Assembly: GCA_943736015.1 (NCBI GenBank)
Contig: OX031058.1
Coordinates: forward strand, 15,711,001 to 15,775,000
DNA from: Tridacna crocea
Lineage: Eukaryota > Mollusca > Bivalvia > Cardiida > Cardiidae
Direction of reading: 5' to 3'
DNA: 64,000 nt
Part shown: positions 340 to 54,227 of the stretch, in pieces
Position numbering within the stretch: the first letter of the stretch is position 1
Layout: each line of letters starts with the position of its first letter
The notes under the pieces: model-generated
Told to the model about the DNA's origin: nothing
What the model saw: only the letters and a program-made list of their open reading frames with translations
The model's database searches: none
Position numbers and translations under genes: made by a program

Positions 340-345
340 TTTATT
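340..345 (-). promoter_or_regulatory. AATAAA hexamer overlapping the legumain stop
   Basis: The minus strand reads CAATAAAT, so the TAA stop lies inside a canonical poly(A) signal. No other AATAAA is seen between here and position 1 on this strand. If it is used, the 3' UTR would be only about 15-30 nt; otherwise the real signal lies outside the window. Confidence 0.4.
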
Positions 346-442
346 GACAAGCCTTGGAAGCTGCACTCTTTATGGTTTCTACAGGGATGTTGGCTTCACA
401 AAGGTTCACAATCATGTACAGGTGCCTCAAAGCATAGTCGTT
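341..442 (-). CDS. LGMN: Legumain exon 13: C-terminus and stop
   Basis: 102 nt with a polypyrimidine/CACAG acceptor. Encodes residues 403-435: [16 protein letters not shown], then [17 protein letters not shown] and TAA. Human legumain has YALRHLYVLVNLCEK here. The last two prodomain cysteines are present. The stop codon overlaps an AATAAA hexamer. Confidence 0.96.
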   Translation of the reverse strand, partial: NDYALRHLYMIVNLCEANIPVETIKSAASKACQ

Positions 443-6400: not shown

Positions 6401-9400
6401 AGGCTGATTCCAATATACCCCCAAAAACATTCGTTTTGCGGGGATATGAAAATAATCCTTTGATAAAAGGTTTAATTGTGCTATGAACTGAAAAGTCAAT
6501 TAACCATATCTCCAAACTGTTGTACATGACTTGTGTTGGTTTCCTCTTTTGTGATCTCGAACTGTTTTTCCAATGTCTCTGAAGTTAAATCTTCCTGCAA
6601 TTCAACAAAAATACGCCATTTTACAGTTCAGCAAACAATACTATGTTATACTGATCTTGAGAAATGCAGCTGCATAAAATACATGATCAGCACAATGATA
6701 TGATTTATAGAGTTTATTTCATCAGCTTGTGGTTAATAGGGAAAGGCATACGAAAATAACAAGTGCCGTAAGGCACAAGTTATTTTCACGGCCTTTTGAG
6801 GCAAATATTTCCCCATATTAACTCTTTACCCCATAGGGCATTTCTATGATATCTCTAATTGACCCTAAATAACAGCAAGGATGAAGCCGTTTTTATGGGT
6901 ATATGACACCTTTTGATAGCATAGAAAACATTGTGACAAAAGGTGAAATTGCTCGTTACGAGCAATTTCACCTTTTGCCACAATGTTTTCCAAAGGCTCC
7001 TACAAGCAATGCGTAGAAATGAGTATCTGTGGAGTAAAGGGTTAACCACAAGCTGATGAAATAAAATCATATATTTCATCTGATTATTTTATAAACGAAT
7101 GCAAATTTTAAAACTAGTGACCTCAAGTCAATAAACCAGATTTTCGGCAGGAGGAAAATATTCACTGTGATAGGTAAATAATTCCCCTCCCCCCCCCCAG
7201 CTTAAATGACATCAGTTCTTTACCCATAACATTGCTAAAAATAGACACATGAAATATATTTTAAGCTGACGGACCTGTGGCATGTGAAGCTTAAAACTAA
7301 ATGTTTGTGTTGGGTATAAGCAGAATGGATTGATTGATAGTATGGTGTTAAACATAGTTTTCAACATTCTATCTTTTATATCGCTGCTGCCAGTGCACCT
7401 ATTCATGCTTTTCTGGAGTTTCTGCTACCTGTACTTCTCACAATATCTTTCAAAATTACTGGCAGCTTTTCCATATAACCATTGTTCAAAATCCTGTCAC
7501 TGTGACTTTCATAAATCCTCAGAAAAAAAGTAGCTGAGCCAGAAATGGTGCAAATAGAAAACCTTCAGTTATGTGACCTTTAACCTTTACCAAACAATCC
7601 TGCTTTAAGCACCTTGGAGAGGGAAGCTGTTAAAAACACTGTTGGAAAAGGAGAAATTATGTGTAGCTATTTCTCTGACTGTTTTCCATCCCAACAGAGA
7701 ACTTCAGCTCATGTGTACCAATTTTAAATTTACCTTCTGCAAATGCCTTTCATTTGGAAGTCTCCAAACATTGGCATTTGGGACAAGGCTATAACCCTGT
7801 AATATTGAGCAGACACAAAAATATGGCTGATTGACAGAAAGATTGACAGGCTGGAAACTCTACTCATTAGTCCAGGCTTAGCTCCTTGTTTGGCTGTTTG
7901 CTGAACAATGAGGTTGAGGAAACTTACATTATTTCTGATTAACAAGCGACTCTTTTACCAAACATTTTACTTGTTGGATTTTTTTTTCTAAATCAACAGG
8001 GTTAAAGCTATTGTAGAGATAAAATGTGCAAGTTTTAAAAAAATCTGCTAACAAGTGAAGACTTTATCACATAAACAAGAAACGAAATTTTCAACTTGAA
8101 ATGGCTACTTTTCCCATACTGTTTGTTGGATTTTTCTCGAAATCAATAGGGTTGAAGCTATTGATGAGATAAACAAACCATGCAAGTTTTACAAAACCTG
8201 ATAACAAAATGAATGTAGACTTTTTCACGTAAACAAGAAACAAGAGATGTTTGTAAAACATGTATGCCCCCCTAATGGCATCCAATGTGATTATAAACTC
8301 TTATGTTCAAGGTGTAAAAACGAACAAACGGTAATTGCTCAAAAATTATTAATGATAAATTAACAATTCTTGGGCACTGCACTTCCCATTTATGTGAACT
8401 ATCAACTTTTAAAGTTTCATGATTTTACTCGCATACTTTTTGAGTTATGCCCCGGAAAAAAAAATAAGTACGAAAATCAACAAAGGGCAGTAATTGCAAA
8501 AATATAATGGGCAGAGTTATGGTTCTTGTGCAATGCACTTCTCCTGAATAAGATCTATCCACATATAAAGTTTCAAGATGATACCTGAAAAACCTTTTGA
8601 GTTATGCTCTGACAAAAATTAAGTATGAAAATCAACAAAGGGCAATAACTCCAAAAATATAATGGGCAGAGTTACGGTTCTTGTGCACTGCACTTCTCCT
8701 TAATAAGATTAATCCACCTATGAGGTTTCAAGGTGATACCTGAAATACTTTTTGAGTTATGCTCCAGAGAAAAATTAACTATGAAAATCAACAAAGGGCA
8801 ATAACTCCAAAAATATGACGGACAAAGTTATGGTACAGGGTGTCCGGAAAGTAAGGTAACACTTTCGTACTTTTATATTTTGGCTTAAAATATAGGATAA
8901 CAAGATGAAAAATATACATACATGTAAATAAAACGTGTAAGTTTTTTTGTGTGATAATTTAATTGAATTTTCATAACACTTCGCGCTTTTACACAGAATT
9001 CACTTCAAAAGTCCTTTTTCGGTCATTGACGTCATTTTAGTAATTAATGACGTTTTCAATGTGACTGTCTTTTACACTCTTTCCTTTCCGAACACGCACA
9101 ATGAATTTTTCACTCACTTTGAAATGCATTCAAAGATCAATCATACTGATTTCACTAGAAGGATTTTTTTTTAACGACAGGTCTGGGTTGTTTAGGTTGG
9201 GATCGTAGACCTTTGACTTCAACACACTGCAAAGGAGGAAGTCATGCAGGTTAAGGTTGAGTTTTGGACTGTGTGCAGGCCATGTCTTACCTCCGGATAT
9301 CGTTTAGACATTACTCTATATCACTGAACATATTATGTAAAAAGTCTGCCACAGATTTAGATGTGTGTGGCGTAGCACTTTCCTGCATGAACCAATTGCT

Positions 9401-12400
9401 TTGCAATGAGGAATGAGGGTGACTTTATTCTGATTTAAACATGTGCGACTTCTTTCTGTTAGTTTAAAAGGTCAAAGGTTGCAAATTGACAGCCTCATCC
9501 AAGACAGCACAGCCATATTGTTAAAGACCACTTACACTGAAATAGATTGATATTTAAATGTGCACTCAAGTGATTCACAATATCATCCGGCATGATCGGC
9601 ATGGTAAGAGCATAATCTGCTGTCTCGCTGCAAACGTCATTAATTGTAAAATGACGCCAATGACAGAAAAAGGACTTTTGAATTGAAATCTGTATAAAAA
9701 CATAAAGTGTTAAGAAAATTGAATTAAATCATCACACAAAAAAACTTACACGTTTTATTTACATGTATATATATTTCATCTCGTTATCTTGTATTTTAAG
9801 CCAAAATATAAATGTCCGAAAGTGTTACCTTGCTTTCCGGACACCCTGTACTTGTACACTGCACTTCTCCTTAGTGAGATCTATCCACCTATGAGGTTTT
9901 AAGATGATACCTGAAATACTTTTAGAGTTATGCTACGGACAAAAATTAAGTATGAAAACCAACAAAGGGTAATAACTCCATAAATATGAAGGGCAGAGTT
10001 ATTGTTCTTGTACACTGCACTTCCCCTTAATGAGATCTATCCACCTATGTAGTTTCAAGATGATACCTGAAATACTTTTTGAGTTATGCTCCGGACAAAA
10101 ATTAAGTCTGAAAATCAACAAAGGGCAATAACTCCAAAAATATGATAGGCAGAGTTATGGTTCTTGTGCACTGCACTTCTCCTTAATAAGATCTATTCAC
10201 ATATGAGGTTTCAAGGTGATACCTGAAATACTTTTAGAGTTATGCTACGGACAAAAATTAAATATGAAAATCAACAAAGGGCAATAACTCCAAAAATATG
10301 ATGGGCAGAGTTATGGTACTTGTGCACTGCACTTCTCCTTAATGAGATCTATCCACCTATGAAGTTTCAAGGTGATACCTAAAATACTTTTTGAGTTATG
10401 CTCTGGACAAACATGTGGTCTACGGACAGACCGACCGAAGGACCGACCGACCGACGGACCGACCGACAAGTGCAAAGCAATATACCCCCATTTCTTCGAA
10501 AGGGGGGCACAATGAAAATTTTCAGCTTGAAATGGCTACTTTTCCCATACTGCGTGTTGGATTTTTTTTGAAAACGATAGGATTGAAGCTATTGAATAGA
10601 TAAACAAATTGTGCATTTCATGGAAATCTGACCATAAATGCAGGCTCTATCGCATAAGCAAGAAAAAGACTAATGGAAAGACAGACAGATGGACGGGTGT
10701 ATGACGGAAACCATGTCATGACATAAGGCTCTGCTGGCTTTCAGCCAGTAGAGCTAATAATTAAATAATGGAATGGAACCATGTTTCACCTCATTTTCAA
10801 CATCATTTCTCTCATATCACTATGATAGCTCACAAACATATATTCATATATCTCTTGGGTTTTATCAGTACAAGGCTAGGACTTTGAAGTGTCTTGCCCG
10901 AGGACATTCAGAAAAAAAGCTCCCAAAAAGGGTCCTTTTCAGGAATTTTGATAATTCCATGTTAAAATTTTCGGATTTTTTTTCTAAATCAGGATATTTT
11001 TTTCCACATTGGTCAATGTGGTCATAGGCTTTCATTTATTTTGATTGTGTCGCAGAATCACCAACCCTTATTTCAAACCCTATGTTGTGGTTACTCTGAG
11101 GTTCTATCCAGGAAGATATGTCCTTAGAATAACCATATAATAAGGTTAGAAATGCATGCGTATCTATAACAACACTGATTATGATATGTGATTAGCTGGT
11201 AATGTTGGACCACAGTAACTTAAGAATAATAGGCAAAGCACTGTTTCATAACTGTTTTAATGAGGTTTTGCAAAACAGTCTGTTTCTCTAGTCATTTGTT
11301 TCAAACCAAGTGGACATGCTAAACCATCTATCTTGTTTTTTGATGTGCATATTTTCTTTTAGTTTCCTAGTGAATTTTGGAAGACACATATTTCAGAGAG
11401 ACATGGTTTCCTTAATAACGACAGTCACATCACAAAATGATTCTTACAAGAAATCTGTCTAAGTACACTGCATAATTCGCAAAAGAAATGCGTATTGAAA
11501 CTATAATCTACCAATTTTTAAAGAGTAGGACAAATAGTTGATGTTAGATCTACTAGTCGATTATTTGAATTTTTCATGTTGCGTTTTTGCAAACAATCGA
11601 TTGCGTGCCTTATTAATTGCAATTATCCATTAATTTCTACCGCTGCAGTCAAATTAAGGGTGATTGATTAGTCAGCGATCATAATTGACGGACCAATATT
11701 ACACACATACCATAATCCATTCATAAATTGGATAAACAATCGCATATGTGTAATTGTCATTTCTACACCATAATCTGGGTCACCAAAACACTTTAACCCT
11801 TTACTCCATAGATACTCATTTCTACACATTGCTTGTAGGAGCCTTTGGAAAACATTGTGGCAAAAGGTGAAATTGCTCGTCACAAGCAATTTCACCTTTT
11901 GTCACAATGTTTTCTATGCTATCAAAAGGTGTCATATGCACATAGGAAACGGCTTCATCCTTGCTGTTATTTAGGGTCAGTTAGAGATACCATAGAAATG
12001 CCTTATGGAGTAAAGGGTTAACATGATTAAAGTTACTCTTTGTATAGTGCCTTCCTTACGCTGAATGGACAACATCAAAGTTTTCAACATGCCTCAAACC
12101 CTTTGTGCATTTGAAAAAAAGTTCAGGCTGAATTTCTGTGATAATTTTTTTTTATAATCTGGACATTGAAAAAAAAACATCTTGACTTTCAAAATACCGA
12201 CGTGTTTTTTTTTTTTCTACAAATTTGGACATAATACATGACAACGTCCGCTTATTGAGAGCACTGACAAAACTCTCCAAATGAACTGATGCAAGTTGTA
12301 ATACATACTCTGTCTGAATCCTGCATCCATTTAATACTGTACACATCTCCCAAATAGGTCTTTCTGCTCTTGTCAAAGTAACAAGCATATGAGGACTCAT

Positions 12401-15400
12401 GAGAATTGGCTGCAGTTGTGGCAAACACTGGAATGAGTTGTAGCATAAATGGGTCATCCTTTGTGAAAATGCATCTGTGAAACATGTCAGCCTGCACAGT
12501 CCATGCAGGCTTAACTCATTACCAAACGAGAAAATTTTAGACTTGTCCAAATTGAAAGCAATTGCAGACAACAAAGTAAAGGTTACTCAAAAATTGAAAT
12601 TTGTTTCCAGCAGGGTAGAAAACTTTGTCGGAAAAGGAGAAAATGCTGGTTACCACCATTTTCTCCTTTTCTCACAATGTTTTCAAAAGGTTTCTATTTC
12701 AGGGTCGTAAAAACCAGGGATTGTTCGGTAAAGGGTTAACCTATTTGCAATAGCTTCATTTGATAGATGCAGTTAAATTTTCTTACACTGGTAGAAAGCA
12801 TTTCCCCCTTTTCACACACTGTTTCCAATACCCCTTCAATACCCTTTCAATACCCTCCTGGGTAGTTATCTCACTACCAAACGACAAAATTTTAGGCTTG
12901 TCCTATTCGAAAGCATTTGCAGACAACAAAATAAAAGAAACTGAAAATTTAAAATTTTTATTGTGAAATGTAGAAAACATCATGGGAAAAGGAGGAAATG
13001 CTGGTTACCAGCATTTTCTCCTTTTCCCAAAATGTTTTCTAAAGGCTTCTTTCTCAGGGGCGTCAAAAGTAGGGATTGTGTGGTAATAGGTTATTAAACA
13101 AATAAGTTGTTTTTGTAAAGATTAAAGCCATGACACTTTACCAAACAAGCCCTGGTTTTAACATCCCTCAGATAGAAGCCTTTTGAAAACATTATGGGAA
13201 AAGGAGAAAATGCTGGTAACCAGCATTTTCTCCTTTTCCCACAATGTTTTCTACTCTTCACAAAACAAATTTCAAATTTTCACTTTTATTTTGTCGTCTG
13301 CAAATGTTTTTAATTTGGACAAGCCTAAAATTCTATGATTTGGTAATGACTCAGGTCAGCTAAATCGGAAAACCAGCATTTTCTCCTTTTCCATCAATAG
13401 TTTCTATCATTTCAAAAGAAAAATTCCATCATATGAGGAACATTGAATTTTCTGCTTATCTTTTCATTTTCCATGAATAAATAATTTTGCAGTTTGGTAA
13501 AGCTTTTATATCTGAAACACAAGTAGAATCATACCATTGATATCTTTTGGCAGAAGGTCATAGAAGATGGAACCAGATTCACAAGCTTCAATATAAAACA
13601 CCATCTGAAAAGAGAGTACAAGTTTGAAAATACAGTGAGAGGTAACCGTAACATATGTTTCAGTTAACCCTTTCCCAAACGACAAATTTTTTTACTAGAC
13701 CAAATTGAAAGCATTTGCAGACAACAATTCAACTCTTGCTGAAAAGATGATTTCTGTCTATGATAGGATAGAAAACATTGTGGGAAAAGGAGAAAATGCT
13801 GGTTACCAGCATTTTCTCTTTTTCCCACAATGTTTTCAAAAGACTACTATTCCAGACCCGTAAAAACCAGGGATTGTTTGGGAAAGGGTAAAATTCTTAC
13901 TAACATGAAAGTTTGCAACAAATGCACACCTGGTGGTATTCGAGCCCATGCCGAAAAGATCCTCATTTTTTTTAAACTATTACCATATGACAATATTTTA
14001 GACTAAACAATGAACTAAAATCTGTTCTAAGGGGACCAAATAGTTTAAATTTGCCTCATCAAAAAGATTTTACTCAGTACCAATGCACTATTTGCTTTCC
14101 AACAATGATTCTGATCTTTTACAAGAAAATTCATGCTACATTTAATTTGCTGTCTAAAAACAATTTATATTACCGTAATACAAGTCTTGACTTGTCTTTG
14201 TGACGAGACATGAAGTACTTGTTTAATTGACAGAAAAGAAGTGTCACAGCCAGCATTGGGTCATACGGCGTGTTTATGACTAATTATGTATGGATGATAC
14301 AAATAGACAACTTTATACACTCTCAGGTATAAAATTTAGCTAAAGTTCATTTCTGAAGGTTTCTTTGATATTCCAAATTCCTGTGATCTAAGAAACACAG
14401 CAGAAATGAGTAGGCTCCATCAAAAAAATCTTGTGGAACATGAATCAATTGAAGTGCCCATGGTTAGTGGATGCTCAAGATTACCAGACAATATAGTACA
14501 TGTATCAATATCGTTACCTTTCCATATTTTCTATCCTTGTGCATCTCCATGATTGCATCATTCAGTACACTTGCCTTCAACTGTAAGAGAATCAATAAAT
14601 TCAATTACTCCCACCATACACTCTGTTGCTTAAAGGTGGGTATTTAGATTTTTCCCATCTCACCAAATTAGAATATATATATATCACACTTAAATCTATG
14701 TGAAAAAACAATACAAATCATCAATAATTAAGAATCATAAAATTATAAAAAAAAATTTAATGGTATTCCCTTAAAAGTCTATGTAGCCTCTTAAGGTATT
14801 TTTTGATTTCGCATCAAAAATAAAAAAAATCATTGTGGGAATGTCAAGTGACTGGCATGTGACTAATGACGCTTAAATTCCGTAACATAACAAACACGTG
14901 ATTATTTTCCATAATGTCTTCTTCAGACGCTATTTTTGAAGCTTCGTCTGTGTATTTCTGGTATGTAAACAAGCGAGATGCCCATCTTAACATAGATGTG
15001 TTTTCCGTCAGTATCGACCTGGGCCATAGTAAATCTCTAATTTCTCTTGTTGTCAGATGGTTTTTGACTACTGAGGTTTTATGAATGAAAATTAAAAGGC
15101 TTTCGGAGTATAAGGATGACTTTTTTGTATTTTTGTAAAATTTTCGTCCCTAAAACTGAACGCCCACCTTTAACTCTTTACCACACAATCCAGACTTTTA
15201 AAGACCTTGAGAAAGAAAGCCTATGAAAACGTTGTGAGAAAAGGAGAAAATGCTAACCAGCTTTCTACCCTTTCCAAATCAAATTTCAATTTTTGATTCA
15301 CATTTATTTTGTTGTCTGCAAATGCTTACAATTTAGACAAGTCCAAAATTTTGTCATTTGGTAAAGAGTTAAAAATGTCCTCAACTCTTCACACAACAAC

Positions 15401-18400
15401 CAAATTTTAGACTGGTCCAAATCGAAAGCATTTAACTCATCAGCATTTTCTTCTTTTCCCACAATCCTAAAGGTCATTTAAATTTGGGATTTTATGGGGA
15501 ATGATTAGGAAACAGGGTTAATTAACTCTTTACCAAACAAAAGAATTTTAGACCAGTCCCATTTTGAAAGCATTTTGTGGACAACAAAACAAATTTGATT
15601 CAAGAATCAAAATTTGTTTTAGGAATAGTAAAAAAAAAAATTGTGGGAAAAGAGGAAAATACTGGTTATCAGCATTTTCTTCTTTTCCCACAATTTTTTT
15701 CAAAAGCTTTCTTCTTCAGGGTCGTTAAAACTCAGGATTATGTAGTAAAGAGTCAACAAATCAGAATATTTCATAGTAACCCATTATCACATGATCCTGT
15801 GTTTTAATGACTCTGTAGGAAAAGGCTTTTGAAAACATTGTGGGAAAAGGAGAAAATGCTGGTCACCAGCATTTTCTCCCTTTCCCACAAAGTTTCATCC
15901 CCATCCACAATAAAAATCATTATTTCAGCTATATTTGTCATCTGCAAATCCTTTCAAATTGGACCAGTCTAAAATTTTGTTGTTTGATAAAGAGTTAAAT
16001 ATGTTTGAAATCATAAAACTCCTATAGATGAAATTAAAAAAAAATGTACCATAATGGAATCTGATAAATAAATATGGCATGCTCTGGCAAAAAGGCATTT
16101 AATTCATCTCTGTGATCTATTTACACAAAGCAAGGTATCTCAAAAAATAAAAAAAAAGAACATGGTGTCCAACAAACAGCTGAAGAAATTTTATCAGGTA
16201 ATGTTGTGTTACTTTTTTTTCACAAAAGACAATATATTCATGTAGGGTAATCATAGTTTGAAAGGATGTTTTCAAAGTAATGGGCAGTGACTCTGTTGAT
16301 TCACTGGCTGACTGATTGACTAATTGATCAAATGGCATTTTTTGTCACTTTTGACATCACTTCAGTCATATCAAATATTCATGTATTTCCTGGGTTTCAA
16401 AAGCATTAGGCTAGGGCTCTGCATGTCTTGTGAACAGGCACTCAAATGAAAAGCACAGTGGATCCAGTGAGGCTTGAACCTGGGGCCTTCAGGTCATAAG
16501 TCCTACACTTTGCCACTGTGCCATGTTGAACCACAGTGAGTCTATTACAGAAGGTAACAGGATTAGGTATAAATGTACTGTATCTATAAAATTATAATAT
16601 TGCTGGTTAACTAATTGTGTTGTATATGTATTTATAAAATATGAAATCAATTGAAATACAAAAAAAAAATATATATAATTTCATGTCCAGTAAAATCTAC
16701 AACAAATAATTACCATGTATGTGTATATACAAACAAAGCATAAGCAGGGAATGGATTGCAATATGTAGGTCAAGCAATAAGCATGTAATATTCAATAATC
16801 CTTTACAAAAAATTCCTGTGCTATAATAACTATAAGGAAAAGGAAATAGTAATTGATAAATCATTTTTTGCTTTCCCCACAATGCTTTCAAAAGCCCTCC
16901 TCCTCAGCACTGATAAAACATGTGACTGGTAAAGAGTAAAATGGAGTGAAAAGGAACTTTCTGTGTAAAACATTTTTAATAATTTGTAAGGGTAACCTCC
17001 CTTTTTGTACAATTCCCCATGATACTTTCTACACTTGATAAACATTTTCTACACTTGATAAACATTTTTTTAAAAAAAAAAATGTGACCTTATACTAACC
17101 AAAACAAAAAAAAAATCACTATTTCATATTGGGAAACATTCTTCTACTGCTAGAAAAAAATCTTTGCATCCCCATCAATACTTGGGAAATGTAATTGATC
17201 TACTTATAGAAAATCTAAGATGATCACAAACTTTGACCAGCCCGCATAGCTCAACAGGTAAAGTGTATAAGTCGTGAATATCATATTCTGAGTCACTTGA
17301 GGGTGTGAGTTTGATCCCCACAGCTGGTGATCTAAAATTAGTAATAGTCATTCAAACATGACATTAAAGTGAGGTCCCATGTGATGGTGCTATACACCAA
17401 GTTTATAGCACTTGGTGCTATAAACATCAGAGCTTTTTTAAAAGCTAAAGAAGTAACCTAAGATCCACACTATCCCCTGTAACAATACTAATAGCCTTCA
17501 GCGGCAACCATCTATAAACACAAATTCAGTCAATCAATTTAAAACTCCACAATGTCTCATAATATTCATAGATAATTAAGTATTCCTTAAAAGAAATTAG
17601 TAAAGCTACATATTGAAGGGAACCAAGTTATATATAGCACCTACTCTGATAGTTAGGTTCTGGAAGACAGAGGTATAATGTATCCCTGTGTTGCATTATA
17701 CAAGACAAGTTCTTACATAATATATGAATCCAATGAGTCCATTTTGTCTCTGATTCCATAGAATGATGGGTTAGTCCTGTGACATGTAAATAGCAAAAAC
17801 TTTTTATTTCATATCAGGCTGCTGACTGAACATAATGACATGGGTTGATACATTTTGCATTATGGTTTCAACCCTCTTATCACATAGCATGAACCATCTG
17901 TGTTTTATCCCAAGCAAGGTAGGGAAAAATCCATGAGATCTTTGTGGTGCAAGGGAAAAAGGGCAATGTACCCTAAAGGTGGTGCCAGTGATCTGACTTA
18001 CCCTCTTTGTACCAAACCCCAGAATACCTGGTGCCCCATGGTCAACAAAGTTGACAAAAACAAAATCATCTGGACCGCTGTTATTTTGGAAAAATAATGC
18101 AATAATGAAATTCTAATAGTTTCTACCATTTGTTACGATACTGCAATGGTGTAATCGCAATCCTTTACCACAGAATTCAGAGTTTTTTATGAACATAAGC
18201 AATAAGGCTATAGTAAGCACTGTTGGACAGTGAGAAATTGCTAAACAGTATTTTTTCAATTGTTTTCTATTCTTCAACGCTATACCAAATGACAAAATGT
18301 TAGACTTGTCCATACTGAAAGACAAGTTAAAAGTGTCTGGATTTATGAAATCTGACATGGTAGAAAACCTTGAGGGAAAAGGAGAAAATGCTGGTTACCA

Positions 18401-21400
18401 GCATTTTCTCCTTTTCCAACAAGGTTTTCAAAAGCTTTCCTTCCCAGGGTTGAGAAAACCAGGGCTTGTTTGGTAAAGAGTTAACAGATTATGTCAACCA
18501 ATTGTTTCCCCCACTAAATTTGTCATCTGCAAATGCATTTAACCCTTTCCCAAACAATAAATTTTAGGCTCTTCCAAACTCAAAGAGTTTGCAGACGACA
18601 ATTTCAAGTTTGGTAAAAATGGCAGAAAGTTCTCTTAATGGGTAGAAAACACTGTGGGAAAAGGAGAAATTGCTCGTTATGAACAATTTCTCCTTTTCCC
18701 ATAGTGTTTTCAAAAGACTTGTACTGCAGACACATAAAAACCAAGGGCTTGTTAGGGAGAGGTTTAATTTGGACAAGTCTAAACTTTTATCTGCTGGTAA
18801 AGGAATTAGTGGTGTCAAAAGTCAACAACAACATAATGGTGATTCATAAGCTCATGACTGTTAAGTGCTTCAACCCATTACCACACAATCCCTACTTTTG
18901 ACGCCCCTGAGAAAGAAGCCTTTTGAAAACACTGTAGGAAAAGGAGAAAATGCTGGTAACCAGCATTTTCTCCTTTTCCCACAGTGTTTTCTACCCTTCC
19001 CAGATCAAATTTTAATTTTTTAGTCACCTTCATTTTGTCGTCTGCAAATGCTTTCAATTTGAACCAGTCTAAAATTTTGTTGTGTGGTAAAGAGTTAAAC
19101 AATCTGTTACAGTCATGTCACATGAGGTTTGACCCTTTACCAAACAGTTCCGATTTTAAATGACACTAAAGAAGACAACAGTTGAAAACATTATGGTGAA
19201 AGGAGAAAACACCAGCATGCATTTTCCCCTTTCTCTGTCACTTTGGCTACCCATCCAAAAACTAATTTCACTTTCTCAATTACTTTTATTTTCTTGTCTG
19301 CAAATCCTTTCAACTTTGACAAATCTAGAGTTATGTTCTTTGGTAAAGAGTTAACCCATCTCCACACAATCCCTCCTTTTGACGATCCTAAAAAAAGGAG
19401 CCTTTAGAAAACATTGTGGGAAACAGAAAAAATGCTGGTAACCAACATTTTTTCCTTTTCCAACAATGTTTTCTACCCTTCACAAAACAAATTTTAAATT
19501 TTCAGTCACTTTTATTTTGTCATCTGCAAATGCTTTGGATTTGGACAAGCCTAAAATATTGTCGTTTGGTAATGAGTTAACTCTTCACCTAGTTAAAAAT
19601 TTTGAAGTCGGCCTAATTGAAAGAATCTGCAGATGTTAAGGCTGAAATGGATATAACTGGACTGAACTTCTCTGACAGGATGGAAAACATTGTGGGAAAG
19701 GAAAAAAAATACTGGTAACACGCCATTTCTGTTTTTACCACAATGTTTTCAAAAGCTTTCTTAATCAGGGCTTTTAACCCTTTCCCAAACAACAAATTTT
19801 GGACTGTTCCGAATTGAAAGAGTCTGCAGACGACAATTTTAGATTTTGAGAAAATGGCAGAAAGTTATGAAAAAGGGTAGAAAACACTGTGGGAAAAGGA
19901 GAAATTGCTCGTTACGAGCAATTTCTCCTTTTCCAACAATGTTTTCAAAAGACTTTTACTGCAGACACGTAAAAACCAGGGCTTGTTTGGGAAAGGGTTA
20001 AACATGTAATGGTTTGGTGAAGGGCTATCGCCCACTACTTTAACTCTTTACCAAACAGTGAAAATTTAGACTTGTCCAAACTGAAGGCATTTGCAGACGA
20101 CAAATAAAACTGACCGAAGATTTGAAATTTGTTTGGGAATGGTAGAAAACATTTTGGGAAAAGGAAAAAATGCTGCTTACCAGCACTTTCTCCTTTTCCC
20201 AGAATGTTTTCAAAAAGATTCTTTCTTAGGGTTGTTAAAAGTCAGGATTTTGTGGTAAAGAAAGAATGTAACATGGAAAAACAGAAAAACCCAACAAAAC
20301 ACAGCGAATATTGGATTTTAGGTTACTTTTTCCTTTGAGTTTTAATTACCCAGAGTAAAAAAGCTTTAGAAAACATTGAGGCAATAGGAGAAAATCCTGA
20401 TTTCCAGCAATTTCTCTTTCTTTCACAATGTTTTCGACCCTGTCGAAGACAAAAATCATGATTTAAGCTTGTCTTCTTTCTGTTTTCTGCAAATGATTTC
20501 AATCTGGTGAATTACAAAATGTTGCTACTGGGTTAAGATTTGTGCATACAAATGGATTAACCGATTATCACGCTATCCTGATTTTTAACAACCCTGTTGA
20601 AAAATCACTTTTGACAATATTGTGGGAAAAGGGAGAAAGTGCTGGTAACCAGAATTTCTATAATTTGTCATTTGGTAAGAGTTGATAAGTAGCCTATGAT
20701 GTGCACTAATCAAGCAGTCTTGATACTCCAAGTTTTGTATTTCCCTACGGTGAAATTGTCTTTCAGATTTATTAGGCATTCAAAATTTGTTAACCCTTTC
20801 CTACACAATTCCAACTTTCCATGATCCTGAGAGAGAAACACTCTGAAAACATTGTGGGAAAAGAAGAACCAGCATGTCCTTTTTACCCAAAATGCTTTCT
20901 ACCTTTCCCAAAACAAATTCCATTTTTAAGTCACATCTATTTTGACATCTGCAAATGGTTTCAATTTTGTCTGGTCCAAAATGTTGTTGTTTTGTAAACA
21001 GCTAACTCTCTACTAGAATGACACTAATTTACACCTGTCTAATTGGAGAGCATTTCAAAACAGAAAATAAATTGTTAATATGTTCAGAATGAAACAATTT
21101 GGTTTCGACTGGACTGAATCCACTGTGGAAAATGGAGAAAATGTTGGTTACCAGCATGTGTTCTCTCATTTTTCAAAAGCTTTTATCTCAAGATTTTAAA
21201 ATCTTAGAGAAGTTTAGTTAGTTCAATATAATATTAGGTGGGAATTTTTTGCGACTGTTAGGATAGAAAACATGGTGAATACATTAAATCAGCTCAGATC
21301 ATAAGATTTAGCTGTCAAAGGGTAAAAACATGTTTGGGAAAAAAAGACAATGCTGGCTACCAACATTCCCTCCTTTTTGAACACTATTTTCAAAAGCCTT

Positions 21401-24400
21401 CTCCTACAGGTCATTGAAACTTAACATTGTATGGTAAATGGTTAGATTATGTGTTAGATCTATTTTTATCTACATACTAAGCAAGCTTCACTTTTTCATT
21501 AACATGCTTTGCAAAGCCAGCCAGTCATTCTTTTACACACTGTACAGCTCTTTGCTGTTATGAATATTCATACAAAAACAGCCACAAATTTGAAACATTC
21601 TGCTCTTCTCTACTAACTGAAAATTGGCATTTCATGCACTGGGCACTCCAAGCATTACATAAAGATTATATAGTCAAACTTTGGTAGCTCAAACACCTTT
21701 GGGACTGGGTAATTTGTTCAAATTGTTTAGATAAATCAGTATAAGTAAACTGTCTGATTTTTGGAAAACTTCTCGAAGTAACCACATGTTTTTCTTTTTT
21801 AACCTAAAACACTTTTTCCCTGACTGTTTTTATGTAGCCTCTGCACCTCTACTTTTTGACATTTTACTCATTTTAAAGTCATTCTATTAGCAAACAAGAG
21901 CGGCAAATTGTCGCAAGATACGCCCGTCTTACCCCAAGTTGTAAAGCTGGGGCATAATAATCATAATATAGGGGAGGTAGAGAAAAATAATAGTGCAGGA
22001 ATTTTTGCCGCTGATTGAAGCAAATGGCATTTTTGATTTCACATCTTTCAAAAAAAAATTAAAATCTACAAGTAAGAGGATGAAATTTCATATTGACAAC
22101 ACCTATACTCTTGGAGATACAGTGTGGTCAAAATTTATGTGTAGAAATAAATAACTGGAGATATCATGTCATGAAATTTCCTAGCCGTAGCTAGCACAGC
22201 ATTGGAGAATCCTCCAAACAAAATTTAAGTCTCAAAAACAATACAGGGGAAAACACAAAAGTTTAGGAAGGAGGAACAATTCCTTACAGTTCCATTTCAT
22301 AAGATGTACTCTCCAACAATAACTAAAAAATTAAGCAAGCAAGAGTTGCAATTTATGGGAACTGCACTCCCCCTTGATGGAATGTATCCATGCATGAAAT
22401 TTCATAACCCTAGTTAGTATAGTTTTTAAGATATGCACCGGAAAAAATTCAAGTATGAAAAACGACAAAGGGCAATAAGTCAAAAATTAAGCAAGCAAGA
22501 GTTATGATTCCTGTGCACTGCACTCCCCCTTGATGAGATCTATCCACCCATGAAATTTCATAACCCTAGCTTGTATAGTTTTGGAGATATGCTCCGGACA
22601 AAATTCAAGTATGAAAAACGACAAAGGGCACTAACTCAAAAATTAAGCAAGCAAGAGTTACGATTTCTAGTCACTGCACTCCCCCTCGATGAGATCTATC
22701 CACCCATGAAATTTCATAACCCTAGCTAGTATAGTTTTGGAGATATGCTCCGGACAAAGAACTGGCCGCCACCCGCCCGGACGCCCGCCCGCCCACCATA
22801 GGTGATCCCATAATACGTCCCGTCTTCAACGGGCGTATTAAAATTATAAGTAGGAAAAAGGAAATTTATTAGCAGACCACATGTTAAGTGACACATCTTG
22901 AATCATATTAAAGTCAAAGATGCAGATTATGATTAAAGTTGTGGTTCAAAAATACCTTTTACATGTTTAACTCTTTATCAAACAACAAAAATTCGACTAG
23001 TCCAAATTAAAAGCATTTGCAGACGACAAAATAAATGTCACTCAAAAATTTAAATTTGAGAAAACATTGTGGGAAAAGGAGAAAATGCTGGTTTCCAGCA
23101 TTTTCTCCTTTTCCTACAGTGTTTTCAAAAGCTTTCTTTCTCAGGGTTGTCAAAAGTTGGGATTGTGTTGTAAAGAGTTAAAGGAAACCTGTATTTCATA
23201 CCAGAGTGCCATTTAACAAAAACGCTTACAGAGATAATGCATCAAAACATCCTTAGAAACCAAAGACGTCTTTAAAGACGTAACAATAGTGTAATCACTG
23301 AAAAAAAATCTTTCTTTGACAACAAAATCAAGGGTGTATACTTTATAGTCAGTTTTAAAAAAATGCAACACATCCATTATTCAAAAGAGCATTATCTCCC
23401 ACTAGATGGCATTCTACAAATACTCATATATCTAATTTGGGCATCCTGGGTACACAGGACTGGACCACATTACTGCGCAACAACCATTGCTATGAATTTC
23501 AAACTAAAATAAATGTTTACTCAATAAAATGCCACATGGTGTGATTCACTCAGCTATGATCAGCAGTTTACAGAAATCTAGAGCTAAAACAGGTCTGATT
23601 TTTCCTCAAATGTATTGAAAAAAGCCATTTTCTCCATTGCTACTTTCTAGCATGTATTATTACAGTCTCCCCTATATAGGGGAGAGTGATGCGTCATAAA
23701 AGACATGTCCAATCTTCGAAGAATATGGCATACACAGACAAGGTTAAGAGAGAGTTTCCGACTTATCAAGTTAACACATAATGGTGTGAAACTCTGTGAC
23801 TTATCGTTGATTAACCCTTTGTTTGACTTAGACAGGTAAAAAACACAAAAGAGTGGATGACGTGTCCATGGTAGGTAATTGAAAGGTAAAATTATGAAGT
23901 GTGAGAGTTTTCCACGGTCGAACAATATATATATCATAAAGAGATTTTGCTGTGCCAATCAAAGGTTTGAGCCACTAAACTTTCACTGTACATGGCACTC
24001 TGCAATTGCTTTCAGTGAAATTAAAAAGGGACATAACCCTGTGAAAATATTTTGATGGTTACCTGCCCTTGTTGTATCAATTGCCCGCTAACAACTAGTC
24101 CAAGTTTGAAGTATGTATATATAAATAGAGAGCTCTAGATGAGAGGGAGTGATCAAAGCTCTACGCCATCTAGTTTCAGAAGAGAAGAATTTTAAAGTTT
24201 TTCTTCTTTGTTCTTATATTCAAACTTCTGACCCCCGGGGGAGTCATTATTTCTCTTCAAAACCGTATGTTGTGGGTACTCATTAGAACTGTCTCAATGA
24301 GACGATTCTAATGAGTACCCAAAACATACCGTTTAGTGCAGAATAATAAATATTTTCACTATTGAAATCTAAATCACTACCCCTATCTGGAGCTCGGTAA

Positions 24401-27400
24401 ATATCTTTATTTAGAACTTGATACTTTAAAATGTCAATGTTTTTTGCATGACGACACAGATGCTGACTTCACAGCTATGACAATAGCTTGATATTTTCTT
24501 CACAAAACAGCCAAGCAAATAAATATAAAAACATTAACCCAAGCCATACAGTTAAGCTATGTGAATACACTGGATTAACACTTTCCTGCCTCCAGATCAA
24601 CATTTTAATTTTTTCTTGCAGCAAACTATTTTTGAAATACTTTATGGCAAAAGTATTACATGTAATTGCTCATATTTACCAATTTCATCTTTTGCATTAA
24701 TGTTTGTAGATCTACATGACATTTGTAAATTCATTGAATCAACATCTGACCTTATCTCTTTACCACACAGTCCCAACTTTTCACAACCCTAACAAAGAAG
24801 CCTTTTGAAAACATTGTGAGAAAAGGAGAAAATACTGGTAACCAGCATTTTCACCTTTTCCTACAATATTTTCTAACCTTTCTATGACAAAGTTAAATAT
24901 TTAAGTCACACTGATTGTGTCATCTGCAAAATGCTCTCAATTTTGACTACCGTAGTCTAAAACTTTGGCGTGTTGTTTGGTAGGAAGAGTTAACTGTTGT
25001 TGATAAAGATGAATTTACAAGGTTTGTTTCCAACAGCGTAAAATGAAATTTGTGACTGGAGGCAACAAGTTAACTATATCTATGTTAGTAACAGAAACAT
25101 CCTCAAAACTGCTCATAATCTTACGAAATCATCTCCAAAACCTAAGATTCCAGGTGCGCCGTGGTCAACAAAATTGACAAAGATGTAGTCATCAGCAGTG
25201 CTAATAAAGACAAAATTCATTATTTACTTGAATATGTAACAATAAAATACTGTTCTGCAAGGAATATATATATATATTGTTGAAAGAAATATTGTGAAAA
25301 AAGGTTTTAATTTGCATGTGCAATATCACCTCTCTACCAAAAGACATGTTACGAACATCTCAGAACAGGTACACATGCTGATGAATAGCATTTTCTTCTT
25401 TTCTGACAATATTTTCAACCCTTTCAAAGACAAATTCCATGATCCACACCAAGTTTTACCCTTTACCACACCATTCCTGGTTTTTTACGACTCAGAGGAA
25501 CAAGCCTACTGCAAAACATGGTGGGAAAAGGAGAAAATGGTGGTTATCAACATTTTCTCCTTTTCCCACAACATAGTCCTCTCTTCTAAAGTCAAGTTTC
25601 AATTTTCGAGTCCCATTTATTTTGTTGTCTGCAAATGCTTTCAATTTGGGCAAGTCTAAAATTTTGTTGTTAGGTAAAGGGTTAATTAGCTTTCTGCAAA
25701 TTCCTGGGATATGAACAAGTCAAGAGTCTTTTTGCTACAGAATCACAGGTTATAAGGTTAACCCTTTACCAAACAATCCAATGTTTTACCCTTTACCCCA
25801 TTAGGCATTTCTATGACATCTCTAATTGACCCTAAATAACAGCAAAGATGAAGCTGTTTCTTATGTGTAAATGATACCTTTTGATAGCATAGAAAACATT
25901 GTGACAAAAGGTGAAATTGCTCGTCACGAGCAATTTCACCTTTTGCCACAATGTTTTCCAAAGGCTCCTACAAGCAATGTGTAGAAATGAGTATCTATGG
26001 AGTAAAGGGTTAACAACCCTTGGGAAGAAGGTTTTGAAAAACACAAAGCAAATACAAGAAAATGCTGGTAATGAACATGTTCTGCTTCTTTAATATTTTC
26101 TACCACATCAGAGAACTTCCACTCATTTATATACATTTCAAATCTGTCTTCTGCTACTCCTTTCAATTTGAAAGTCCTAAAATTTCTCTATTGTGAACGG
26201 GATCAAAGCAGATGGTACATACCTCTCGATGACTTTTCCATTAGCCGTTTCAGCGTCACCTGTCAGTACAGCAATAAAATTCTCTGGATTGACGTCCTGA
26301 AATGACATTCTCTCTTTTTATTCTCCTTAACTCTTTACCAAACGACAAAATTTTAGACTTGTCCAAATTGAAAGCATTTGCTGGGGACAAAATAAATGTG
26401 ATTAAAGAATTGAAATTCATTTCAGAAAGGGGAGAAAACATTGTGGGAAAAGGAGAAAATCCTGGTTACCAGCATATCAAACTTTTTTTGCAAAGCCACG
26501 ATGGCACTGATAGTGACAAAGATGACTGGGCTGTGACAATATTTCAGTTTTTTTTTTTTTTTTTTCAAGAACAGTCCCACTAAAATATTACCATGTTCAC
26601 TCAAAATAAAAGTGGTGGTCTAGTGTGGATGAGAATAAATCAAAATTTTAATTTTCACACTTTTCACAAGTCTGAACAACCCTGATGCAAAGAGCTTTTG
26701 AAAACAATAAAGGAAAAAGAGAAAATGCTGGTAACCATTATTTTTTCCTTTTTCAAAAATGTTTTCTCCACTTTTTGAGGTAAATCTAATCAGTGAGCTA
26801 TATTTAATTTGCTGTCTACCAAAGCCTTCGATATGGACAAAGCTAAACTTATGTTGACTGACCCTTTATCACACAATCCCTAGTTTTAAGCTGGGTAGAT
26901 TTTCACATGACACCAAATTGAAAATTATAAATATCACTGAAATTTATATGAAAAAAAATACAAATCATCAATAATTAAGAGTCATAAAATTTCAAAAAAA
27001 AACTATTTGATGGTGTTCCCTTAAAAGGCTACATAGCCTCTTAAGGTTTTAGTTTAGTTTAAACATATTTATTTTACATCGATTGAGAAACAAGTTCTTA
27101 CAACTTATACTAATCTCTCTCAAGTTCTTACAACTTATACTAATCTCTCTCTATTCTGCTTCCTGGGAACTACACCAGTACTCGCGCTGAATGTGTGGGC
27201 CAATGAAACACCCAAAGTTGACACCCGCTTCCGGGAATCGAACTCAGGACCCTTAGGTTATGAGGCTGACGCTCTACCTCACAACCACGGACACCAAAAT
27301 AAGGTATTTTTAGTTTTTGCACCAGAAATCAAAAAAAGCATTGTGGGGGATGTCAAGTGACTGGCATGTGACTAATGATGTTTAACCCATTACCACACAA

Positions 27401-30400
27401 TCCCTACTTTTGACGCCCCTGAGAAAGAAGCTTTTGAAAACATTGTGGGAAAAGGAGAAAATGCTGGTAACCAGCATTTTCTCCTTTTCCCACAATGTTT
27501 TCTTCCCTTCACAAAACAAATTTCGAATTTTTTGTCACTTTTATTTTGTCATCTGCATATGCTTTTGATTTGGACAAACCTTAAATTTTGTCCTTTGGTA
27601 ATGAGTTAAATTCCATAACATAACAAACATATACATTGCACAGGCACTTAGAATAGTGTTGCACTCACCTATCGAAATGCTTTCAAAATGGGTTATGTTT
27701 AAAATTATGCTGTATGGGTAAAAAGTAATGAGTTACCTTTCCTTTGTAGTCTATTTTCACTCCTTCATATACATTTGGCCCATTAGGTCTGTTAATAATG
27801 TTTCCTTGTACTGGATTTCTGCAAAAAAAAAACAAAAGGTTCTTTATCTGAATGTTACAAACATTTTGAAGGCTGACAAACAACATTTATACTGAGCTCC
27901 AAATAGAGGGAGTGATTTTGATTTCAAAATTGAATATATTAATAATTCTTCACTAATCCCAATGTTATGGACGCTCATTAGCATCGTCTCATAGAGGCGA
28001 TTCTATTGAGTACCCCATAACATAGGGTTTGGAAGAGAAATAATGGATTTAGAATACCATCACTCCCTCTTATCTGGAGCTCTGATATATCTGATAAATA
28101 CAAGGAATGTTCCAAAATTACCCAAGAAAGCCTCAACTTTCCTTAACCCTTTACCACACAATGGCAAGTTTTAACGACCCTAAGAACGAAGCCTGGAAAC
28201 CAGCATTTTCTCCTTTTCCCACAAAGTTTTCTACCCTATCAAGGAAAATTGCATTATTTGAGCCACAAAAATTGTCTTCTACAAATGGTTTCAATTTGGA
28301 CGGGTCTAAAATTTTGCTGTATGGGAAAGAGTTAATATACATATGTGACCCACAACGCGAAAAGAGAGCATCTGGAAATTCTACACATCAATTAGATGAA
28401 AACAGCTCAAAGACAGACCAGGCTAATTTAACCCTTTACCACACGGCTAATTTAACCCTTTACCACACAATCACAACTTTTAACCACCCTGAGAAAGAAG
28501 ACTTCTTAGAACATTGTGGGAAAAGGACAAAATGCTGGTAACCAGCATTTTGTCCTTTTCCCACAATGTTTTCTTCCCTTCCCAAAAGAAATTTCAAATT
28601 TTTAGTCACTTTTATTTTGTCATCTGCATATTTTTTCAATTTGGACAAGTCTAAAATATTGTCGTTTGGTAAAGGGTTAAGTTGACCACTTTTCATACAA
28701 GAAATATAAAGGCAAAAAGTGTCAACCCTGGTCAGCCTGCGCAATTCGCACAGTCTGACCAGAATAGACACTTTTCGCAGTTCCCAGATAGCCCCTGTTT
28801 GCGTGAATGGTCAAATATGAGCCATATTGAGGCAAAAGAAGTTTATTGTACCTCCTTGATGCATCTCACCTAGGCAGTCATCACATATCTTTGGATCCAT
28901 AAAATCCATTTTGTTAACTCTTTACCAAACGACAAAATTTTAGACTGGTCGAAATTGAAAGCATTTGCAGACGACAAAATAAAGGTGACTGAAAAATTGA
29001 AATTTGTTCTGGGAAGGGTAGAAAACACTGTGGGAAAAGGAGAAAATGCTGGTTACCAGCATTTTCTCCTTTTCCCACAGTGTTTTCAAAAGGCTTCTTT
29101 CTCAGGGGCGTCGAAAGTAGGGGATTGTGTGGTAATGGGTTTGACAACCATCTGAATCCTGAGCTAGTATAGTCCTTGGACATGTATAAAATATAGAAAA
29201 AGCAAAACAATCTGATTAGGTCAGCCTGCACAAATTACTATCATAAAGGGCCCATTTCAGGAATTTTGAAATTCCATATCTGAATTCTAGGATTTTTGAA
29301 AATTTGTGAAGTTTTCAATACCTCAACTACATGACTTTTTTTTTTTCTCCCATTTTATTAGTGGCAAAGTTTTCCATGTGATACGCATCTGTTTAAAGCA
29401 CACTCTATTATTAATGCCAGTTTTAATCATTGTCTGCAAATGTTTCAAACTGAGATGGGTCTAAAATGCTGGCATTTGGTAATGAGCCAAAAGAGGTACT
29501 GTGTCACAAGTTCATGACTTACTCTGGGTTGTATGCAATGTCATCATACATCATCGTAATGATCTTGTCTTCATCAAATCCATGACGTTTCAATATTTGA
29601 TAGGCGTGGCATACATCTGCCTGAAATTAGACAATCAACAAAATGCTGATATGGTCCACTCAAGATGACAAAATCTTTGAATTGTACATACAAAATTTTG
29701 TCGTTTGGTAAAGAGTTAAGCCCCCCATGTGTTAATTTTGTAATCTTACATAGATTAGATAGACTAAATGAGGTTAAATCTAAGTAATCAAGTTCACTAA
29801 CCCTTCATGCTTTATACACACAGAAAAATACAATAACTTGTCAAAAAAATTTTCTTGATTTATAGCAATTCAACTGAGTAATGTCCTTCCCCGGCACAAC
29901 AAAATTCCAGCCATATCAAAGTTGGCAACATTCTTGAATGGCAAGAAAGTCTCTTATGGTTGAAATTAGTAGATGAAACATAGAAAAGTATTGTGAGAGA
30001 GCCGAAATGGGGATTATTTACCTTCAATCTGAAGTGCTGAAGTGTTATTTTTGTGATAGTTTTCCAGCTGAGACAAAATAAAATAACGTTGGAGCATGCC
30101 ACTGAATTGGGGGTAGGGGAAAATACTACTACTAGTAGGGTTTTCATTTTTTCTTGTGGTGTTTTGAAAATCTTCTTTCTCAAGTTCCGACAAAATTTAT
30201 GTCAAAATTTAAGACACCGAGACAAATAAAAAGCATTTGCAGACCATAGGTCAAATATGCGATAAATGATCAGATTTATCTTTAAAGGTGGCCCTTCAGA
30301 TTTTGGGACGAAAATTTTACAAAAATGCAAAAAAATCATCCTTATACTCCCAAAGCCTTTTAATTTGCGTTGATAAAACCCCAGTAGTCAAAGACCGTCC

Positions 30401-53275: not shown

Positions 53276-53442
53276 TCTTAATTGGGTTGGTTTATTTTTA
53301 AGAACTAGACCAGGAATACTGTTTGGAAGGGTTAGTAAGTGAAGTCCCAGAAGCAGTTTTTATCAATTGTTTACTTCAATCCTACATCTTACTTCTTAGA
53401 TAAACCATCTGGATGGCCAGGACAAACTATCATCTTGTTACC

Positions 53443-53671
53443 TGAACTCTTTACCAAACAACAAATTTATGGATTGGACCAAATTCAAAGCATCTGCAGA
53501 CAACAAATTAAATCTTGTTAATATGGTGATTTCTGACTTTGATAGGGTAGAAAACATTGTGGGAAAAGGAGAAAATGCTGGTTACCAGCATTTTCTCCTT
53601 TTCCCACAATGTTTTCTACAGGCTTCTTTCTCAGGGTCCTTAAAAATCTGCATAGTGTGGCAAAGAGTTAA
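53443..53671 (-). mobile_element. P1 MITE
   Basis: Perfect hairpin and right TTAA; the inner block ATTTCTGACTTTGATAGGG is shared with P4. Confidence 0.88.
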
Positions 53672-54227
53672 GTATTACATGAAAACACAGGAATATGCCT
53701 ATCAAAGATTTCTTATTGAACATGACTTACGGGATGTACTGTAATAATTATATATCAGTAATATGGCACAACACAGAGAACTGTGGTTCTATGCTATATA
53801 GAGGCATGTGAAGCCTGGTTCCTGCATGTTTGCACAAGATAAAAGTTCGGACATAGAATCAGACTGGGCACAATGAATGGTATGAAGCTTAAGCTATATT
53901 AAAAAAAAAAGCCTGCATGCCAAAATATCCATACTATTTCAGTCAATTTCTCATATTTGAAACAATTTTGTTTTGCGTAGTGTAAAGCCTAAATACTTGT
54001 TTTGTTTGCACCAAATAACCTTTTCAAATTTATCAATGTTTCAATCTTTTTGTATAGTTATGTTACTTCTATGTTTTGAAACAAAGAACAGAGAAATACC
54101 ACGGATATTTCAGTTGCCCACAGATCAAATACTGATGTGACATTCAAAAATATAATTTGAACCCCATGTTCAAAGAAATGTAACTTTCCACCATAACATC
54201 AGTGTGTCTCACAAAAATCTATACATC
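53672..54227. other. Unassigned intergenic sequence
   Basis: No exon or repeat recognised. Confidence 0.35.

What the first reader, a model, noticed from the sequence alone, without database searches (positions are those of the whole stretch)
18002..25200. Legumain gene with two alternative exons for its catalytic histidine
Seen: 25125-25200 (5A) and 18002-18077 (5B) are both 76 nt, both flanked by AG and GT, and both start and end in the same phase. Each gives an intact C13 His block ([15 protein letters not shown]). Exon 4 ends in AG. Exon 4 to exon 6 directly reads AGT TGA, and 5A followed by 5B reads CGG TCC AGA TGA, so skipping both or including both gives an immediate stop. Only one-of-two splicing gives a protein. 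I know of no described legumain with a duplicated catalytic-His exon, though I cannot search. Inference: one locus produces two active-site variants of this protease.
Basis: partly seen in the sequence, partly recalled or inferred. Interest (0 to 1): 0.92.

Follow-up and report, generated by a model that had tools for sequence, protein, structure and literature searches.

The report
Bivalve legumain with duplicate histidine exon
A protein-cutting enzyme gene in what looks like a bivalve genome carries two intact versions of the small exon that encodes its active-site histidine, arranged so that a working enzyme can be made only if exactly one of the two is used, but no transcript data were available to show that both are used.

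Summary
The window contains one complete legumain gene on the minus strand (39915-341), with 12 single exons and two alternative fifth exons of 76 nt, 5A and 5B. Either alone gives an open 435-residue prolegumain; both give a stop after residue 166, neither a stop after residue 138. A genome-wide search found this gene and one weak PIG-K-like hit. The exons differ at 27 of 76 nt, but in the 16 codons around the catalytic His all 10 differences are silent (0 of 200,000 random-substitution simulations did that), so both appear to have been kept by selection on the protein. 5B is the ordinary form; 5A has STA where 177 of 233 compared legumains have SGP. Asp-His-Gly is identical in both, so these are variants of the framework around an unchanged catalytic core. 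Mutually exclusive use is the best reading. Expression, tissue choice and occurrence in other bivalves remain untested. The class (tandem duplicated exons; enzyme precedents coq-2 and KHK) is known. I saw no report for legumain in the listings of ten open-access library searches.

The parts
39757..39915 (-). exon 1 (coding part): start codon, signal-peptide-like N-terminus, [18 protein letters not shown]
29523..29620 (-). exon 2
27737..27818 (-). exon 3
26223..26296 (-). exon 4, ends in AG (phase 2)
25125..25200 (-). exon 5A, 76 nt, [25 protein letters not shown]; divergent form, lowest-scoring donor of the gene (TTC|gtaaga)
18002..18077 (-). exon 5B, 76 nt, [25 protein letters not shown]; ordinary form, highest-scoring donor (AGG|gtaagt), lowest-scoring acceptor
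14518..14580 (-). exon 6, [21 protein letters not shown]
13535..13604 (-). exon 7, catalytic Cys ([12 protein letters not shown])
12309..12427 (-). exon 8, [18 protein letters not shown]...
6505..6594 (-). exon 9
5178..5261 (-). exon 10
3879..3995 (-). exon 11 (start of prodomain region)
2891..3064 (-). exon 12 (prodomain)
341..442 (-). exon 13 (prodomain end, stop codon)

Best explanation
A tandem-duplicated, mutually exclusive exon pair inside a single legumain (asparaginyl endopeptidase, peptidase C13) gene. Splicing joins exon 4 to either 5A or 5B and then to exon 6; the other exon is skipped. Because 76 is not a multiple of 3, using both or neither gives an early stop, presumably degraded by nonsense-mediated decay (inferred). 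The result is two prolegumains that differ at 7 of 435 residues. Both keep Asp147-His148-Gly149 and are predicted to be catalytically competent. They differ in the loop before, and the first residues of, the strand that leads to the His, and at the turn of the following hairpin (TKR versus DDF). The most likely effect is a tuned substrate, pH or prodomain response, not gain or loss of catalysis. Shown: gene structure, frame logic, silent-only divergence of the core, no second copy detected. Inferred: regulated use of both exons, NMD, functional difference.
For: Full gene with AG/GT internal junctions and two open 435-aa products. Both products match Pfam Peptidase_C13 (E 2.9e-109 for A, 8.1e-110 for B) and the legumain prodomain (E 5.2e-10 each). 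The two exons have equal length and phase and are homologous (BLOSUM62 score 99 for A against B); every other exon gave one match in the window at E <= 1. In 16 core codons 10 of 10 nucleotide differences are silent: 0 of 200,000 simulations with 10 random changes kept the protein; over the whole exon 0 of 50,000 simulations with 27 changes had as few as 7 amino-acid changes, and about half gained a stop. If only 5 of the 10 fell on 5A, the chance that all are silent is about 0.0017. The genome-wide search returns the 14 exons of this gene and no second legumain. Splice-site scores are unequal in a way often seen for alternative exons (general knowledge): 5A has the lowest donor score of 13 and the second lowest acceptor, 5B the highest donor and the lowest acceptor of 13.
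Against: No RNA evidence. No relative with a 5A-type exon among the 233 of 240 retrieved proteins that could be compared; the 5A-directed search had one candidate and no hit. The protein database is clustered at 90% identity, so two isoforms that differ at 7 of 435 residues would be merged. The STA start of 5A is not unique: 4 of 233 legumains have it, and 3 of 11 named bivalve proteins are nearer 5A than 5B by one residue. The 5B acceptor is poor (TTCCAAAATAACAG), and poor sites also fit an exon that is not used. The splice scores rest on 10-11 training sites of one gene and penalise the shared first exon base C. The introns between the alternative exons are long (1,022, 7,047 and 3,421 nt) and repeat-rich, so no steric mechanism enforces exclusivity.
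Confidence: 0.8

Rival explanations
1. Only one exon (probably ordinary-type 5B) makes protein; the other is used to lower output: inclusion of both, or skipping of both, makes NMD-targeted transcripts that set legumain level.
For: Both misspliced forms stop early; 5A has the lowest donor score of the gene and lacks the SGP found in 177 of 233 compared legumains.
Against: A poison exon need not keep its protein sequence, yet the 5A core shows only silent differences from 5B, and 5A alone gives a complete enzyme.
Confidence: 0.1
2. One of the two exons is a dying relic of an old duplication and is no longer spliced in.
For: No transcript data; each exon has at least one low-scoring splice site.
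Against: Open frame, AG/GT present, identical phase, no amino-acid change in the core although NG86 could not compute the silent divergence.
Confidence: 0.06
3. 5A or 5B belongs to another legumain gene nested in or next to this one, or is an assembly error.
For: Bivalves can carry more than one legumain: two Potamilus streckersoni proteins with the same longest-contig length were retrieved (P0131, P0133).
Against: No other exon is duplicated in the window at E <= 1. No second legumain in the whole-genome search; the 5A DNA matched only its own place (a search too insensitive to match even 5B). 27 differences in 76 nt are not allelic. The 5B DNA could not be searched genome-wide (tool busy).
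Confidence: 0.04

Closest known systems
Animal legumains (peptidase C13), PDB 4nok and 4fgu (labelled Legumain; species names mouse and human are recalled)
   Same: Isoform A aligns over nearly its whole length with 4nok (E 4.3e-121) and over residues 32-434 with 4fgu (6.7e-121); C13 domain, prodomain, Asp-His and Cys conserved.
   Different: Two alternative exons for the His segment; isoform A has STADDY in place of the usual SGPxDx.
coq-2 mutually exclusive exons in helminths, annelids and molluscs (PMC7434440, passages read)
   Same: One enzyme gene with two homologous exons, one like the pan-eukaryotic form and one lineage-restricted, that remodel the enzyme core and are spliced one at a time; reported in molluscs.
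   Different: Different enzyme; there exon choice is backed by RNA-seq and by exon removal in C. elegans, and it changes quinone synthesis. Here neither is shown.
Ketohexokinase (KHK) tandem duplicated exon (PMC9741552, passages read)
   Same: A catalytic residue (Arg108) lies in the duplicated exon and is conserved in both isoforms, as the His is here.
   Different: A different enzyme, in the annotated human gene set.
Human mutually exclusive exon clusters (PMC5740500, passages read)
   Same: Neighbouring, similar, same-frame exons; [quoted passage not shown]
   Different: Those were validated by splice-junction reads; LGMN/legumain occurs 0 times in the main text.

Membership tests
Legumain / peptidase C13 | C13 catalytic domain over its full profile | tested here: met
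   Both isoforms match positions 1-257 of 258, 365 and 366.8 bits against a cut-off of 22.8
Legumain / peptidase C13 | Catalytic His preceded by Asp, and catalytic Cys in EACESGS | tested here: met
   VDHG in both 5A and 5B; EACESGS in exon 7; His148, Asp147 and Cys189 named in PMC4506564 (passages)
Legumain / peptidase C13 | C-terminal legumain prodomain (its use to tell legumain from PIG-K is recalled) | tested here: met
   PF20985, 39.9 bits against a cut-off of 25.2, residues 336-434
Legumain / peptidase C13 | Asn-specific cleavage | not testable with these tools
   needs expressed protein
Mutually exclusive tandem-duplicated exons | Neighbouring internal exons, similar length, same reading frame, sequence similarity | tested here: met
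   76 nt each, same phase, 18 of 25 whole-codon residues identical
Mutually exclusive tandem-duplicated exons | Joint inclusion not productive | tested here: met
   stop after residue 166 if both are used, after 138 if neither
Mutually exclusive tandem-duplicated exons | Junction reads from each exon that bridge the other | not testable with these tools
Mutually exclusive tandem-duplicated exons | Both exons under coding constraint | tested here: met
   10 of 10 core differences silent; per-exon probabilities; without relatives the changes cannot be assigned to one exon
Mutually exclusive tandem-duplicated exons | Conserved in related species | tested here: inconclusive
   no 5A-type protein; 90% clustering and lack of relatives' genomic DNA prevent a verdict

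The most novel reading that the evidence does not exclude
The exon switch gives one gene two functionally distinct legumains, for example a protease-biased and a ligase-biased form, or forms for different pH or compartments. It would work by changing the framework around an unchanged Asp147-His148 pair (Asp147 is needed for ligase activity in human legumain), as the coq-2 exon switch does for quinone synthesis.
Probability: 0.2. Interest if true: 0.82.

Novelty: new variant of a known kind. Interest (0 to 1): 0.63.

Why it matters
Legumain is both a protease and a peptide ligase, and what sets the balance is, to my knowledge, an open question. A natural pair of enzymes from one gene, with identical catalytic residues and only seven differences around them, would be a ready-made test of how the framework tunes activity. 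It would also add a protease to the enzymes in which exon choice reshapes the region of the active site.

Tried and rejected
Second gene or retrocopy: disfavoured by the whole-genome search and by the absence of other duplicated exons at E <= 1. The 15th genome hit (C2:49000502, E 1.15) reads like PIG-K (label from recall).

Traces of the original duplication in the introns around 5A and 5B: blastn between 26222-24000 and 20500-15000 gave many matches. The match between the exons themselves is 47 nt at 81% and does not leave the exons. The others I take to be the interspersed repeats of this window; I did not check them one by one, so nothing was concluded.

Competing RNA structure as the switch: 92 inverted-repeat pairs of 30 nt or more lie between 14400 and 26300 (the 25 longest were shown), as repeats in both orientations would give. 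No docking site can be singled out without relatives.

5A-type proteins in other species: 233 of 240 retrieved proteins compared over 26 residues (7 dropped because the motif or full length was missing); 169 are closer to 5B, 23 closer to 5A by 1-3 residues, 41 tied; none carries the 5A combination. The 240 are the listed best 120 of 283 and best 120 of 3,658. The 5A-directed search had one candidate and no hit; I count it as uninformative.

My first chance control scored each cassette against 5A and 5B themselves, so the two top scores were self-matches; one search repeats it against the Mya protein. I first leaned on a Gly that is invariant in 29 legumains, but I had chosen those 29 of 240; over 233 proteins 192 have SG, 177 SGP and 4 STA at that place, so the wording is weakened.

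The first regular-expression search for exon 6 gave one unrelated hit; it was found by its start. Rfam: 0 matches.
Full report
What is there. The window lies in a 1.05-gigabase genome of 31 contigs. On its minus strand, from 39915 to 341, sits one complete legumain gene. I built it exon by exon from splice sites and from relatives and checked the whole model in one script. There are 13 coding exon positions. Position 5 is occupied twice, by 5A (25200-25125) and 5B (18077-18002). All internal junctions of the model are AG/GT. With 5A alone or with 5B alone the model is open for 435 residues. Both products match the C13 domain and the legumain prodomain. The closest named proteins to isoform A include bivalve legumains: Mya arenaria 62% over 100% of the query, Mactra antiquata 62% over 100%, Dreissena polymorpha 62% over 98%, Ruditapes philippinarum 64% over 88%.

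Is it more than chance? The window holds 125 stop-free AG-76nt-GT cassettes in this phase on its two strands. Against the same segment of the Mya protein, 5B scores 117, 5A 95 and the next best 3 (BLOSUM62). AG, GT, length and phase alone would therefore not be convincing; the homology is.

Are both exons functional? The exons differ at 27 of 76 nucleotides. In the 16 codons [16 protein letters not shown] there are 10 differences, 9 of them at third positions, and all are silent. Of 200,000 simulations with 10 random changes, none left the protein unchanged. Over the whole exon none of 50,000 simulations with 27 changes had as few as the observed 7 amino-acid changes, and half gained a stop. 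Synonymous divergence could not be computed by NG86 (the program returned -1, which I read as saturation), so the duplication is probably old. If only 5 of the 10 changes fell on 5A, the chance that all are silent is about 0.0017, and the same holds for 5B. These simulations treat sites as independent and the changes cannot be assigned to one exon without relatives. They show constraint; they do not show expression.

Is it one gene? A six-frame search of the whole genome with the isoform B protein gave 15 matches: the 14 exons of this gene and one weak match on another contig (E 1.15) whose reading frame looks like PIG-K (label recalled). Earlier searches with the Pfam model (2 matches) and a 74-residue join (4 matches) also hit only this window. 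The 5A DNA matched only its own place, in a search that did not even pick up 5B. The same query for 5B did not complete. In the window every other exon gave one match at E <= 1, with one further weak stray match (E 0.43) on the plus strand. A very divergent second gene could be missed, since 5B and 5A themselves scored only 4.2e-9 and 1.5e-4.

What differs. 5B reads SGPDDFVF...GFGTKR, like ordinary bivalve legumains (for example Mya SGPNDHVF...GFGSKT). 5A reads STADDYIF...GFGDDF. Of 233 compared proteins 192 have SG, 177 SGP and 4 STA at that place, so STA is rare but not unique; all 11 named bivalve proteins printed have SG. In 29 proteins that I chose from the 240 the Gly is invariant and the Pro nearly so. 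The 3' end of 5A is less unusual: Sinanodonta and Potamilus have AFGDDT and AFGDDM. Of the 11 named bivalve proteins 8 are nearer 5B and 3 (Sinanodonta, one Potamilus, Tegillarca) nearer 5A by one residue. 5A carries net charge -5 against -1 for 5B. An AlphaFold2 model of the Mya protein (mean pLDDT 89.3) has strands at 140-146, 153-156 and 159-162. By my mapping the differing positions are 136-137 in the loop before the first strand, 140-141 at its start, and 158-160 at the turn and start of the last strand; Asp147-His148 follow the first strand. In human legumain Asp147 turns into a succinimide and is needed for ligase activity (PMC4506564, passages). It is kept in both exons. So the two predicted enzymes share their catalytic residues and differ in the framework.

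How it probably works. The introns are 1,022 nt (4-5A), 7,047 nt (5A-5B) and 3,421 nt (5B-6) by the coordinates, too long for steric exclusion, and both exons use GT-AG sites. The frame makes wrong products unproductive, as exon lengths would in 377 (60%) of the human clusters (PMC5740500, passages). By a leave-one-out score on this gene 5A has the lowest donor (1.91; the others 2.07 to 11.45) and the second lowest acceptor (0.16), 5B the highest donor (11.45) but the lowest acceptor (-6.53). That score rests on 10-11 training sites and penalises the first exon base C that both share. It suggests that neither exon is included by default, but it also fits an exon in decay. Self-similar repeats cover 55% of the window, and the region has 92 inverted pairs; a role for RNA pairing can be neither supported nor excluded.

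What is known. Tandem duplicated exons spliced one at a time are a recognised class. Precedents in enzymes are coq-2, where molluscs too have the pair and exon choice controls rhodoquinone synthesis (PMC7434440, passages), and KHK, where the catalytic arginine lies in the duplicated exon and is kept in both (PMC9741552, passages). Ten searches of the open-access library showed no listing that describes such an exon pair in legumain or a protease with two alternative catalytic-His exons. Five of these lists were capped (searches showed 20 of 3,603, 20 of 58, 15 of 16, 15 of 23 and 12 of 3,306). I read listings there, not the papers, and most subscription journals are missing.

Against the reading. 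No transcript was seen. No relative with a 5A exon was found: of 240 retrieved proteins 233 could be compared; 169 are nearer 5B, 23 nearer 5A by one to three residues, 41 tied, none with the 5A combination. The database merges proteins above 90% identity, which would hide such isoforms. Membership in the mutually exclusive class is therefore met on structure and constraint and untested on splicing.

Verdict. I put 0.8 on true mutually exclusive use, and 0.2 on the stronger claim of two functionally distinct legumains. The corrections made on rechecking (a self-matching control replaced, the Gly claim weakened) did not change these odds.

Noticed in passing
window, whole; e.g. 28917-29234 (-), 32517-32855 (+), 53400-53741 (+): About 55% of the window is covered by self-similar interspersed repeats whose translations recur on both strands (..[22 protein letters not shown]..). 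No Rfam match at gathering threshold.
   Followed up: partly
9133-9424 (-): Short frames (..[18 protein letters not shown]....[15 protein letters not shown]..) resemble a decayed Tc1/mariner-type transposase (resemblance recalled, not tested; frames).
   Followed up: no
340-345 (-): An AATAAA hexamer overlaps the legumain stop codon (CAATAAATTT). If used as a poly(A) signal the 3' UTR would be very short.
   Followed up: no
L021 1456-1644 (-): PIG-K-like frame (..[36 protein letters not shown]..; label recalled) on another contig of the same genome, the only hit outside the window (frame).
   Followed up: partly
18002-18077 and 25125-25200 junctions: The two alternative exons have unlike splice sites: 5A lowest donor and second lowest acceptor score, 5B highest donor and lowest acceptor score.
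   Followed up: partly
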